Source of the DNA: an uncultured Tateyamaria sp.
GTDB taxonomy: Bacteria; Pseudomonadota; Alphaproteobacteria; Rhodobacterales; Rhodobacteraceae
Assembly (NCBI RefSeq): GCF_947503415.1
Contig: NZ_CANNDS010000002.1
Location: forward strand, 248,001 to 312,000
DNA length: 64,000 nt
Direction: 5' to 3'
The notes beneath the pieces are model-generated. The model was not told the DNA's origin. It searched no databases and saw only the letters and a program-made list of their open reading frames with translations. A program made the translations under genes and the position numbers. This document shows, one piece after another, positions 49,900-52,953 of this stretch; position 1 is the stretch's first letter; every line of letters begins with the position of its first letter.

Positions 49900-49980
49900 G
49901 TCCGGTGATCCTTGTCGGCTCTCTCGCAGATGCATATATTGCACACGCAGCACGATTGAAACCGTTCGGAGCCGACGCAG

Positions 49981-50304
49981 ATGCAATTGCCACCCACAGT
50001 GACCGACCGCGCCTTTGAACGCCTGGCCGAGATTGGCGCCGCCGATCAGGGCCAAGCCCTGCGTGTGGCTGTCGAGGGTGGCGGCTGTTCCGGGTTTCAG
50101 TATGAAATCGCGCTGGACGACCCCAAGGAAGACGACCTCGTATTGGAAGGCGCGGGCCAGAAAGTTGTTGTCGACAGCATCAGCCTGCCCTTCCTTTCCA
50201 ATGCCGTGATCGACTTTTCCGAAGAGTTGATCGGCGCGCGGTTCGTCATCGAGAACCCGAACGCAACCAGTTCGTGCGGTTGCGGCACGTCGTTTTCGAT
50301 GTAG
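49981..50304 (+). CDS. ErpA/IscA-type iron-sulfur insertion protein
   Basis: This 107-residue A-type carrier passes Fe-S clusters to target proteins. Three conserved cysteines are present: Cys36 in EGGGCSGFQY, and Cys99 and Cys101 in SSCGCGTSF. The fold segments FERLAEIGA and VVVDSISLPFLSNAVIDFSE match. In Rhodobacterales this divergent pairing with dgt is common. ErpA and IscA are not separable on sequence alone here. Confidence 0.92.
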   Translation: MQLPPTVTDRAFERLAEIGAADQGQALRVAVEGGGCSGFQYEIALDDPKEDDLVLEGAGQKVVVDSISLPFLSNAVIDFSEELIGARFVIENPNATSSCGCGTSFSM

Positions 50305-50307
50305 GCA

Positions 50308-51363
50308 TCAGGCCCGCGCGAACACCTCGAAGAAGGCTTCGAAATGCGCGGTGGAAGCGACCGTTGCTTCCAGTACGGCTGCTGCATCTTCATCAAGCAT
50401 GCTGAAGACATAGTCGCACATATGTGCCCAGTCGTTGCTTCGGGTTTTGGCAGCAGCAAACAAAGCTGCGGATACACCGCGCAAAGCACCGGCACCGTAG
50501 GTGTTTTGGCGAAATGTGGCGCGGCCGACGGGAATGGCCAAACTGGTGTCATCGAACCCAAGCGCGCGCACGGCCCACGTCGACACCAGGTATTCATGGT
50601 AGTCGTCGCCCGCTGCGCCCTCCGCCTCGGTCACTATGGAAAAGTCGGATGACGCGCGGCGCACCGCATCGATCCAAATTGGATCAGGCGTTTGGCCCGA
50701 TTGGTGCAGGGCAACACATACCTCGGCCAGCAGATCGATGTTCTGATCCAGATGCGCCAGGATCCCTGCATATTCAAGACTGCGCAAAGCCCGATCATCA
50801 AGGTGAGGATCGCAGCGACCATATTCAGACAGGTAAAAGACAATATGCGTCAGCTCATAGGCCGCTTTCTTGTTGGGCAACGCAAAGGTGTCGGACCGGC
50901 CAATAAAGGCGCGCAGTCGCGCATCCAAGCCTGCATCGACTGTGGAACACTGGACACCCCTGCGGGTCAAAAGGCGTCGGGCTTCAGCGCGTTGCAAATC
51001 GCTGAGTTCCGCATCCGGCAACCCTTGGCGCGCCACACGGTGGCACAACGCCTCCATCTGCCCGCCAGCCATGCCCAGATCCTCAAGATCCAGACCGATC
51101 GACAAAAGAAATCGGTAGTATTGCGGAAAGAATTGAAGCCGGTCGGACAGCCCCTCGTAAAACCCGAAATGCGGAGCCAGCGCTGCTTTTGACACGCGGG
51201 TGCCCGTACATTCCAGTATGCTGAGCAGTTCCGCGTTTTCCTTCAGCCAGAATACGTCATCCTGAATGCGGCGCTGCGTCGCGAAAAGGTCGATCAGCGT
51301 GTCTGCCCGTTCGGACAGACGCTGACGGCGCGGCGGGACGTTAAGAGCAATGATGTTCGACAT
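50308..51363 (-). CDS. Helical protein of unknown function paired with a repeat protein
   Basis: This 351-residue protein begins MSNIIALNVPPRRQRLSERA and is almost all helix, with repeated 35-40 residue helical hairpins. One conserved-looking block is KKAAYELTHIVFYLSEYG near residue 185, where a His sits in an aromatic helix; similar His-containing blocks occur in some uncharacterised alpha-toroid-like families. No catalytic motif, signal or membrane segment is clear. AAGGA precedes the ATG at 51363. The repeat-protein gene ends 47 bases upstream on the same strand, so the two form an operon. A processing or binding partner of the repeat protein is one possibility. Confidence 0.7.
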   Translation of the reverse strand: MSNIIALNVPPRRQRLSERADTLIDLFATQRRIQDDVFWLKENAELLSILECTGTRVSKAALAPHFGFYEGLSDRLQFFPQYYRFLLSIGLDLEDLGMAGGQMEALCHRVARQGLPDAELSDLQRAEARRLLTRRGVQCSTVDAGLDARLRAFIGRSDTFALPNKKAAYELTHIVFYLSEYGRCDPHLDDRALRSLEYAGILAHLDQNIDLLAEVCVALHQSGQTPDPIWIDAVRRASSDFSIVTEAEGAAGDDYHEYLVSTWAVRALGFDDTSLAIPVGRATFRQNTYGAGALRGVSAALFAAAKTRSNDWAHMCDYVFSMLDEDAAAVLEATVASTAHFEAFFEVFARA

Positions 51364-51410
51364 GGTAGATGTGTCCTTGTTCCTGCTGTGAATACGCCCC
51401 GCCATCGGGG

Positions 51411-51809
51411 TCATGAGCCTGATGAAAACAGGCCGGTGACATCGCCCTGAGACGTCGTGCCTGTGATGGGGCCGGAACCGGATGAGAACATCTCGATCTT
51501 GTCGCCTGCCGCAGTGTCAGATGTCAGTGGCGTGCTACTGGTCGAGAACATCTCAACCCCGTTGCCTGTGACCGTGTCTCGTGCCGCTGGTGCACTGCTC
51601 GTCGAGAACATCTCGACCCCTTCGCCGCGAATAGTGTCGCGTGCCGCCGGTGAGCTGCTGGTGGAGAACATCTCGACCCCGTCGCCCAATACGCTGTCGC
51701 AGGTCACTGGCGCGCTGCTGGTGGAGAACATTTCAACACCGTCCCCAGTGTGCAGTCCGCCGAAGGAAGTGGTGTCGAGAGCGGTGTTAATTTTACGTTG
51801 AGCAGTCAT
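51411..51809 (-). CDS. Protein of exact 20-residue tandem repeats
   Basis: The 132-residue protein has a 21-residue leader (MTAQRKINTALDTTSFGGLH plus T), then five 20-residue repeats and an 11-residue partial repeat. The repeat consensus is G-D/E/N-GVEMFSTSS-x-P-x3-DT-x2. The first four repeats keep GVEMFSTSS unchanged; the fifth reads KIEMFSSGS and the last VTGLFSSGS. There is one Cys (repeat 1). The repeats are Ser/Thr/Gly-rich with no membrane segment. The ATG at 51809 has AAGGGA nine bases upstream. It could be a multi-core peptide precursor, a fibre or coat protein, or a scaffold read by the neighbouring helical protein. No known family is assigned. Confidence 0.75.
   Translation of the reverse strand: MTAQRKINTALDTTSFGGLHTGDGVEMFSTSSAPVTCDSVLGDGVEMFSTSSSPAARDTIRGEGVEMFSTSSAPAARDTVTGNGVEMFSTSSTPLTSDTAAGDKIEMFSSGSGPITGTTSQGDVTGLFSSGS
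51414..51746 (-). repeat. Tandem 60-base coding repeats
   Basis: GAGAACATCTC or a near match occurs every 60 bases, starting at 51484, 51544, 51604, 51664 and 51724, with a partial unit at 51424 (GATGAAAACA). The period is exact, and third-position differences are common, so the unit is maintained at protein level. Confidence 0.9.
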
Positions 51810-51911
51810 TGCGATGATCCCTTTCATCCTTGGGTTGTGATGCCCAAATCGTTGCCCGTTAAAGGCGATTAGAAAAAGGGAAATTCTTGCCAAAGGCGAG
51901 TAAGCCCAAGG

Positions 51912-51920
51912 TTATCCACA
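51912..51920 (+). promoter_or_regulatory. DnaA box 1
   Basis: TTATCCACA is an exact match to the bacterial DnaA box. It lies about 100 bases upstream of the repeat-protein start. Confidence 0.6.
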
Positions 51921-51989
51921 TAAGGAAAGCCGCAGAAGCACCTGACCGCGCCCAGCTTCTCTTCAGAAAATTTCGGAACAAAAAATTTT

Positions 51990-51998
51990 ATCCACAGC
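51990..51998 (+). promoter_or_regulatory. DnaA box 2
   Basis: A second exact TTATCCACA lies 78 bases from the first in the same orientation, at the end of an AAAAAATTT tract. I noticed no other copy in the window. Confidence 0.6.
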
Positions 51999-52064
51999 CC
52001 TGTTTTTGCTGGGATTTTTGCCGTTTTGACTTGTGGCAGCTCAACTTTAACCCGAATCGAAAAG

Positions 52065-52079
52065 TTAAGAAATAGTTAA
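52065..52079. promoter_or_regulatory. Perfect CtrA-type box
   Basis: TTAA-N7-TTAA lies 92 bases before the xth start, 7 bases after a GAATC (CcrM-type) site. The box is symmetric and could serve either divergent gene. Confidence 0.6.
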
Positions 52080-52170
52080 TTCACGGTGTGAGGAGCGTCG
52101 TCGCGCAGGGGCTTGCCGCGCGGCGCGGGATGGGCGACACCGGACAGATACAGATGACGGGGGGCCTGGC

Positions 52171-52953
52171 ATGAAAATCGCGACGTTCAATATCAACGGC
52201 ATCAAGGCACGGATCGATGCCCTGCCCCGCTGGCTCGATGCCGCAACCCCGGATGTTGTACTGCTTCAAGAGATCAAGTCCGTAGACGAGACTTTCCCTC
52301 GCGAGGTGTTCGAGGATCGTGGATATAACGTCGAAACCCATGGCCAGAAGTCATTCAACGGCGTCGCCATCCTGTCAAAGCTACCGCTTGAGGATGTGAC
52401 GCGCGGCTTGCCCGGCGATGATGAGGACGAACAGGCCCGCTATATCGAAGCCACCGTCATGGGTGACAATCATGCGGTGCGTCTGTGCGGGCTGTACCTG
52501 CCCAACGGAAATCCGGTGCCCGGTCCCAAGTACGACTACAAGCTGGCATGGATGGAGCGCCTGCGCCTGCGCGCTCAGGAACTGCTCGCGCAAGAGACGC
52601 CGTTCCTGATGGCCGGCGACTACAACATCATCCCGCAAGCAGAAGACGCCAAGCGCCCCGACGCGTGGCGCGAGGATGCGCTGTTCCGCATGGACAGCCG
52701 CACCGCGTTCCGCAAGCTCCTGAACCTTGGCCTGACAGAGGCGTTTCGCGCGCGCACCTTTGGCCCCGGTCACTATTCCTTCTGGGACTATCAAGCCGGT
52801 GCCTGGAACCGCGACGACGGCATTCGCATCGACCACTTCCTGCTCAGCCCCGGCTGCGCCGACCTTATGACGGATTGCCAGATCGACAAGGCCGTGCGCG
52901 GCGAAGAGAAGCCATCGGACCATGTTCCGGTATGGGTTGATCTGGCAGCCTGA
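52171..52953 (+). CDS. xth: Exodeoxyribonuclease III
   Basis: This 260-residue AP endonuclease/3' exonuclease acts in base-excision repair. It has MKIATFNINGIKARIDALPR, the metal-binding Glu34 in LLQEIKS, LYLPNGNPVPGPKYDYKLAW, the AGDYNIIPQAEDAKRPDAW loop and the closing KPSDHVPVWVDL with the catalytic His. The start ATG at 52171 gives the standard MKIATFN. A regulatory region with DnaA and CtrA-type sites precedes it. Confidence 0.96.
   Translation: MKIATFNINGIKARIDALPRWLDAATPDVVLLQEIKSVDETFPREVFEDRGYNVETHGQKSFNGVAILSKLPLEDVTRGLPGDDEDEQARYIEATVMGDNHAVRLCGLYLPNGNPVPGPKYDYKLAWMERLRLRAQELLAQETPFLMAGDYNIIPQAEDAKRPDAWREDALFRMDSRTAFRKLLNLGLTEAFRARTFGPGHYSFWDYQAGAWNRDDGIRIDHFLLSPGCADLMTDCQIDKAVRGEEKPSDHVPVWVDLAA

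What the first reader, a model, noticed from the sequence alone, without database searches (positions are those of the whole stretch)
50308..51809. Two-gene system: exact 20-residue repeat protein and a helical partner
The first protein has a 21-residue leader, five 20-residue repeats and a partial sixth, with GVEMFSTSS unchanged in four repeats while DNA third positions vary. The second is a 351-residue helical protein of unknown function in the same operon. A leader plus identical cores resembles a multi-core peptide precursor with a modifying or binding partner; a structural or surface polymer is another possibility. Neither protein matches a family I can name, and the pair has its own elaborate upstream region.
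Basis: partly seen in the sequence, partly recalled or inferred. Interest (0 to 1): 0.85.

Follow-up and report, generated by a model that had tools for sequence, protein, structure and literature searches.

The report
Multi-copy peptide precursor and modifying enzyme
A marine bacterium and many relatives carry a small gene that spells out the same short peptide many times over, a different peptide in different species, next to an enzyme related to peptide epimerases and behind a promoter with replication-initiator (DnaA) boxes, which looks like an undescribed kind of modified-peptide signal or weapon.

Summary
In detail: a 132-residue protein (21-residue leader, five 20-residue units, partial sixth) is encoded 47 nt upstream of a 351-residue helical protein. 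Nearest named relatives are Tateyamaria. The partner is Pfam DUF6902, related to DUF6895; a DUF6895 member is called a lasso-peptide epimerase in a 2026 paper's title (title only seen). The pair is near-obligate: of 198 family genomes 55 have DUF6902, 52 of them the repeat gene; only 2 marginal, unexamined repeat hits lack DUF6902. In 119 distinct precursors the core (mostly F-x-x-x-x) has 37 versions; 775 of 852 units carry their own protein's version, in 589 DNA spellings, so selection on the peptide, not copying alone, keeps copies alike. Spacers vary. An EamA-like transporter gene follows in 69 of 117 loci, not in this genus. Perfect DnaA boxes lie upstream in 76 of 111 loci, typically at about -110 and -186; 0 of 17 xth promoters without the cassette have one. 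Most likely a multi-core RiPP-like cassette: DUF6902 modifies (probably epimerises) each core, unknown proteases release it, and a short species-specific peptide results, perhaps timed by DnaA. Chemistry, cleavage, export, DnaA control and function are inferred, not shown.

The parts
51411..51809 (-). multi-core precursor (repeat) gene, 132 aa
   Evidence: no Pfam match up to E 1, one meaningless NCBIfam match far below its cut-off, no PADLOC match up to E 0.1
51747..51809 (-). leader, 21 aa, with a conserved start M-x-A-x-x-K
   Evidence: sequence; in alignment A4 of 40 N-termini M1 is invariant, A3 and K6 at least 90%
51687..51746 (-). unit 1, GDGVEMFSTSSAPVTCDSVL
51627..51686 (-). unit 2, GDGVEMFSTSSSPAARDTIR
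51567..51626 (-). unit 3, GEGVEMFSTSSAPAARDTVT
51507..51566 (-). unit 4, GNGVEMFSTSSTPLTSDTAA
51447..51506 (-). unit 5, GDKIEMFSSGSGPITGTTSQ (FSSGS-type core)
51414..51446 (-). partial unit 6, GDVTGLFSSGS; the protein stops at the end of the core
   Evidence: the same stop at the core end in 89 of 119 precursors
50308..51363 (-). DUF6902 protein, 351 aa; proposed modifying enzyme, related to DUF6895
   Evidence: PF21843 E 1.7e-150, PF21836 E 9.9e-22; model; motifs around H173, D210/E214 and Y255-H256
51912..51920 (-). proximal perfect DnaA-box sequence (TGTGGATAA read toward the gene), about -110 from the start codon
51988..51996 (-). distal perfect DnaA-box sequence, 76 bp further upstream
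52065..52079 (.). CtrA-type site TTAA-N7-TTAA, about -270; a site at -267 to -298 occurs in 16 of 19 loci of the genus
   Evidence: weaker case than the DnaA boxes (see full report)
52171..52953 (+). divergent neighbour, xth-like (exonuclease III-like) gene; not part of the cassette, shares the intergenic region
   Evidence: PF03372; used as control

Best explanation
A two-gene (in many relatives three-gene) cassette for a ribosomally made, modified peptide. The small gene encodes a cytoplasmic precursor: a leader starting M-x-A-x-x-K, then 2 to 20 copies of a core (F-x-x-x-x after a G-[DE]-x-[VT]-x-x lead-in) separated by variable spacers. SHOWN: gene order, near-obligate pairing, core identity within and diversity between proteins, homology of the partner to DUF6895, an EamA-like gene next door in 69 of 117 loci, DnaA-box sequences at a fixed distance. 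INFERRED: the DUF6902 protein recognises the leader or lead-in and modifies every core, most likely by turning one residue to its D form with residues of the His/Asp/Glu set (H173, D210, E214, H256) shared with DUF6895; unidentified proteases free the core at its C-terminal end (where most precursors simply stop); where present, the EamA-like protein exports the product. Since copies are kept alike within a species but differ between species, the product probably acts through a matching recognition partner, as a signal or a narrow-range antagonist. The promoter suggests timing by DnaA, with CtrA possible in some lineages.
For: Pairing: 52 of 55 DUF6902 genomes hit by the precursor profile, 2 of 143 others marginally (E 0.009-0.010, not examined); Fisher p 1.7e-41 with those two counted against. 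The other three: G099 has a divergent two-copy MMCCS precursor, G139 is a contig-end fragment, G039 has no repeat gene recognised upstream and its protein lacks both His motifs. Core: 37 pentamers in 119 proteins; with units defined by flanks only, 775 of 852 carry the protein's commonest tetrapeptide, in 589 DNA versions; within-protein identity at +1 to +4 is 0.85-0.91, between-protein 0.38-0.63, spacer positions -10 to -7 and +7 to +13 0.21-0.34 within proteins. Sister loci L037 and L124: enzymes 94.8% identical, all 7 parsed cores FTSGS in one, all 6 FSSGS in the other. Spacing 20 or 21 in 661 of 718 steps but 8 in 24. Enzyme: PF21836 match. All 3 loci outside the family that passed the DUF6895 cut-off (L200, L201, L202) have precursor-like ORFs with two repeats or two paralogues just upstream. 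A DUF6902 locus of another class (L234) has a three-copy GCYT precursor, DUF6902 and EamA in a row. EamA-like gene: 69 of 117. DnaA boxes: 76 of 111 upstream, 0 of 112 downstream, 0 of 1524 random pieces; 77 of 111 against 0 of 17 xth promoters.
Against: No reaction, cleavage or product is shown. The epimerase link rests on one paper title about a related family (paper not held) and on a partial homology (profile 19-245 of 289; 17-21% identity). Of the nine hits over the DUF6895 cut-off, L201 and L234 have a precursor, L235 has no upstream sequence, L236-L239 show no precursor that I recognised, and L240-L241 only Gly-rich small ORFs about 2 kb away. No protease gene was recognised beside the pair; in the window's genus the EamA motif is missing in 19 of 19 loci and the own genome's best EamA match has 27-29% identity. 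Copies are not all alike: 47 of 119 proteins have at least one deviating unit, and all nine FSTSS precursors end in FSSGS. A model of the repeat protein shows regular short strands, at mean pLDDT 58. 35 of 111 loci lack a perfect DnaA box.
Confidence: 0.62

Rival explanations
1. The same RiPP-like cassette, but DUF6902 does other chemistry (for example cyclisation, crosslinking or dehydration in the Ser/Thr-rich core) or only binds the precursor, the epimerase activity being special to a branch of DUF6895.
For: Cores are rich in Ser and Thr; no PDB relative of DUF6902 by sequence or by Foldseek at E 0.001; only 17-21% identity to DUF6895 proteins.
Against: The His, Asp/Glu and Tyr-His motifs are shared between the families, and the one homologue lacking both His motifs has no precursor recognised.
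Confidence: 0.2
2. A structural or scaffold repeat protein (for example a beta-solenoid or intracellular polymer) with a helical chaperone or cap.
For: Spacing of 20 or 21 in 661 of 718 steps; low-confidence model with short strands in each unit.
Against: Steps of 8, 13, 15, 17 and 19 also occur, 8 and longer ones in one protein (L140, L184); spacers vary while the core is fixed; the fixed residues differ between near-identical sisters; the partner's homology.
Confidence: 0.1
3. A replication or cell-cycle regulator: the repeats are linear motifs that bind a host factor, and the DnaA boxes mark feedback on replication.
For: DnaA-box pair at a fixed distance from the precursor start; TTAA-N7-TTAA in 24 of 111.
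Against: 143 of 198 family genomes lack DUF6902; the motif turns over quickly between species, unlike one that binds a conserved host factor; EamA-like gene in 69 of 117 loci.
Confidence: 0.06

Closest known systems
DUF6895 (PF21836) lasso-peptide epimerase (Shi et al., ACS Catal. 2026; title seen in the reference list of PMC13352647, nothing else)
   Same: Homologous domain; shared motifs around H173, D210/E214 and Y255-H256; a precursor-like ORF beside the three DUF6895 genes that I read outside the family.
   Different: DUF6902 is a separate Pfam family; its substrate would be a multi-core precursor with conserved F-x-x-x-x cores; whether the catalytic residues agree is unknown to me.
MslH, metal-dependent epimerase of lasso peptide MS-271 (PMC10406935; start of abstract in search listing)
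   Same: Epimerises a residue of a ribosomal precursor.
   Different: Acts on the C-terminal Trp of a lasso precursor; I did not compare its sequence with DUF6902.
Multi-core precursors such as fungal dikaritins, cyanobactins and yeast alpha-factor (recalled)
   Same: Many copies of one short peptide in one precursor, separated by spacers.
   Different: No secretion-type N-terminus here; another adjacent enzyme family; DnaA-box promoter.
EamA-family transporters (PF00892)
   Same: The L234 neighbour matches PF00892; other neighbours were called by a motif.
   Different: Known mainly as metabolite exporters (recalled); no role with such a cassette seen in the 12 of 30 papers listed.

Membership tests
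DUF6902 (PF21843) | Profile match above cut-off over the whole length | tested here: met
   501.2 bits against cut-off 27; 1-351 of 351
DUF6895 (PF21836) | Profile match above cut-off | tested here: met
   78.1 bits against 23.8, but partial, profile 19-245 of 289
DUF6895-type peptide epimerase | L-to-D conversion of a precursor residue | not testable with these tools
   needs protein chemistry; only shared motifs seen
RiPP (ribosomal, modified peptide) | Gene-encoded precursor with leader and core(s) | tested here: met
   conserved start and core pattern in 119 precursors; a sequence pattern, not proof of processing
RiPP (ribosomal, modified peptide) | Partner enzyme that modifies the precursor | tested here: inconclusive
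   near-obligate DUF6902 partner; activity unknown
RiPP (ribosomal, modified peptide) | Modified product | not testable with these tools
   mass spectrometry needed
Lasso peptide | B protease and C cyclase genes | not tested
   no search for B or C genes was run; the two flanking genes checked in the window match PF03372 and PF01521
Secreted or surface repeat protein | Hydrophobic N-terminal signal | tested here: not met
   0 of 114 precursors have a 15-residue stretch of mean hydropathy over 1.6 in the first 40 residues; a crude test
Known anti-phage defence protein | PADLOC match | tested here: not met
   no family up to E 0.1 for either protein

The most novel reading that the evidence does not exclude
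A replication-timed, species-specific peptide pheromone (or kin-discrimination toxin) system of Rhodobacterales: DnaA, with CtrA in some lineages, fires a multi-core precursor in step with replication, DUF6902 epimerises every core, and the released D-residue pentapeptide lets cells tell their own species from others, its sequence switching in all copies between sister species.
Probability: 0.2. Interest if true: 0.93.

Novelty: new variant of a known kind. Interest (0 to 1): 0.8.

Why it matters
If right, this gives a role to a Pfam family of unknown function present in 55 of 198 sampled genomes of the family (one per genus), adds a multi-core peptide kind with a ready series of natural core variants (37 pentamers in 119 precursors), and ties peptide production to the replication initiator, which would make replication-coupled communication directly testable in culturable marine bacteria. 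Sister species with every parsed core switched (L037, L124) are a clean case for asking how repeated cores change together.

Tried and rejected
Origin of replication: the boxes suggested oriC. In the single-contig genome G055 a dnaA-like gene (recognised by eye, not Pfam-tested) lies in the first 20 kb and the locus at 2.58 Mb, just past the GC-skew sign change seen between the samples at 2.20 and 2.42 Mb, so it lies on the terminus side; rejected for that genome only (20 samples of 20 kb).

Boxes belonging to xth: rejected. None of 17 xth orthologues from genomes without DUF6902 has a perfect box within 500 nt upstream. The boxes keep their distance to the precursor start (median 111, IQR 109-116, n 70), not to xth (IQR 202-257); the pair spacing is 76-77 bp in 34 of 40.

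CtrA sites: enrichment is against random pieces (24 of 111 against 3 of 1524), but the upstream regions are AT-richer (GC 0.50 against 0.62) and the xth control has 1 of 17, so CtrA control is a suggestion only.

Unit duplication or gene conversion as the sole cause of core identity: same-residue codon differences are about as common in the core as in the spacers; but recent duplication is visible in some precursors (L034; L037).

Mobile element: no match in plasmids, phages or viral contigs. RNA element: no Rfam match at gathering score in 49900-52400. Defence: no PADLOC match. PDB fold: nothing at E 0.001; weak terpene-synthase matches (TM about 0.4) not used. VIA-align was not available.

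Papers: DUF6902 none; PF21843 or PF21836 none; DUF6895 one paper, a reference title. In the listings I recognised no paper on this cassette (20 of 30, 20 of 23, 2 of 2 and 12 of 30 listed). PMC13352647, PMC6473078 and PMC2877005 were seen as passages only.

Caveats of parsing: unit finding allows two mismatches and picked up a few false units (first unit of L166, L150 and L154); one search uses flanks only, on the same 119 proteins. The profile was built from precursors of some of the same genomes, so its positives are not independent; its lack of strong lone hits is. EamA was called by a motif; Pfam was run only for L234, and start positions were read for three. From 154 loci 119 remain after dropping 27 duplicates, four with fewer than two parsed units (L077, L082, L085, L177), two with masked N (L053, L163) and two fragments (L086, L087). 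Not examined: the DUF6895 matches below cut-off (two, one each) and the two marginal precursor hits G157 and G180. L203 (weak partial match G530) was listed and not pursued.

Full report
WHAT IS THERE. The nearest named relatives of the window's enzyme are Tateyamaria (61-74% identity). On the minus strand a 132-residue repeat protein (51411-51809) is followed after 47 nt by a 351-residue protein (50308-51363). The partner matches Pfam DUF6902 over its full length and, more weakly and in part, DUF6895. The repeat protein matches no Pfam family up to E 1 and no PADLOC family up to E 0.1.

PAIRING. In 198 genomes of the family (one per genus) DUF6902 occurs in 55. A profile of precursor N-termini hits 54: 52 with DUF6902 and two marginal ones without (E 0.009-0.010), not examined. 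The three DUF6902 genomes not hit are G099 (a divergent precursor, MMCCS twice), G139 (contig-end fragment) and G039, a diverged homologue that lacks both His motifs and has no repeat gene recognised upstream. In the genus 19 of 20 genomes have the enzyme; all 18 loci besides the window have a repeat gene upstream. The genome-contig scan found 371 relatives, of which the best 80 were kept; their titles name Rhodobacterales genera (as I recall the taxonomy), family-level bins or unnamed alphaproteobacteria. DUF6902 also occurs in two genomes of another class of the phylum (class not named in the calls): in L234 it lies between a three-copy GCYT precursor and an EamA gene, in L235 the contig ends at the enzyme.

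CORE. From 154 loci, 119 distinct precursors with two or more units were parsed. They hold 2 to 20 units; 89 of 119 stop exactly at the core's last residue; all 14 with Trp at the fourth core position carry an extra tail. With units defined by flanks only, 775 of 852 have the protein's commonest tetrapeptide after the aromatic residue, written in 589 DNA versions; 72 of 119 proteins have all units identical there. Between proteins the same positions agree 38-63%; the G at -6 and the aromatic residue are conserved everywhere, the P at +6 in most. So identity is largely kept by selection on the peptide. On the enzyme tree (118 rows, quick search, many weak branches) the 17 core groups with more than one member need at least 33 changes, where 16 would be the least possible: cores change often and some recur. 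L037 and L124 show a complete switch (7 of 7 parsed cores FTSGS, 6 of 6 FSSGS) with enzymes 94.8% identical. In Tateyamaria one clade of nine has FSTSS cores but keeps FSSGS in the last one or two units. Spacing is 20 or 21 in 661 of 718 steps but 8 in 24, with runs such as FTSGSTAL in L140, which argues against a strict structural period.

ENZYME. Conserved blocks are WLKENAE, FPQYYRF, SDLQR, PNKKAAYELTHIVFYLSEYG, DLLAE and DxYHE. Against DUF6895 proteins L200 (9443-10441), L201 and L202 the shared residues lie around H173, D210/E214 and Y255-H256; the second L200 ORF in the alignment, not Pfam-tested, lacks them. The model is confident (pLDDT 92.9) without a close PDB fold. One DUF6895 protein is described as a lasso-peptide epimerase in the title of a 2026 paper (passages of PMC13352647; paper not held). 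The three DUF6895 loci outside the family over cut-off (L200, L201, L202) carry precursor-like ORFs before the gene, L200 also a papain-like protease. Of the nine over cut-off, L236-L239 show no precursor that I recognised and L240-L241 only Gly-rich small ORFs about 2 kb away. In L240 a DUF6895 stretch (E 1.1e-8) is fused to a D-aminopeptidase, which would fit D-residue chemistry but is one weak match.

EXPORT AND LOCATION. No hydrophobic N-terminus in 114 precursors. By motif, an EamA-like gene follows the enzyme in 69 of 117 loci; in the three starts that I read it begins at or within 2 nt of the enzyme's stop. It is missing in all 19 loci of the window's genus, and the own genome has only distant EamA proteins (27-29%).

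PROMOTER. TTATCCACA occurs within 400 nt upstream in 76 of 111 loci, against 0 of 112 downstream regions and 0 of 1524 random pieces, mostly in one orientation (116 of 124), at about -110 and -186, 76-77 bp apart in 34 of 40 pairs. Upstream regions are AT-richer than the random pieces (GC 0.50 against 0.62), but xth promoters of genomes without the cassette have no box (0 of 17, against 77 of 111; Fisher p 2.4e-8). The own genome has 28 perfect boxes in 4.87 Mb against 22 for the reversed control pattern, so boxes as such are hardly enriched genome-wide; the two here are the closest pair in the list. TTAA-N7-TTAA occurs in 24 of 111, at -267 to -298 in 16 of 19 loci of the genus, but also in 1 of 17 xth controls. 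That these are the DnaA and CtrA boxes is recalled knowledge. 35 of 111 loci lack a perfect DnaA box.

JUDGEMENT. The multi-core precursor reading is well supported by sequence; the epimerase step, cleavage, export, DnaA control and biological role are inference. Loci are related, so counts are not independent events.

Noticed in passing
L240 4484-6175 and L241 5302-7128: In L240 a D-aminopeptidase (Peptidase_M55) with a DUF6895 stretch in its C-terminal half, near an ATP-grasp protein and small Gly-rich ORFs ending in SIGSINVSG; L241 looks alike by eye. A possible separate peptide cluster.
   Followed up: partly
L200 4819-11276: DUF6895 neighbourhood with, by eye, a transporter and a methyltransferase, a papain-like protease (Pfam), two paralogous short precursors and a further ORF after the DUF6895 gene.
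   Followed up: partly
L085 5923-6996: Diverged DUF6902 homologue lacking both conserved His motifs and without a recognised repeat gene upstream: a possible natural loss case.
   Followed up: partly
L234 3732-6259: Cassette in another class of the phylum: three-copy GCYT precursor, DUF6902 and EamA in one apparent operon.
   Followed up: partly
L038, L044, L050, L051, L052, L054, L058, L059, L060, L062, L066, L067, L152, L171: The 14 precursors with Trp in the core all carry a short tail after the last core, unlike most others, hinting at a different C-terminal cut.
   Followed up: no
L092 and L099 (precursors): Single odd cores (FSTCS, FSSGL) inside otherwise uniform precursors.
   Followed up: no
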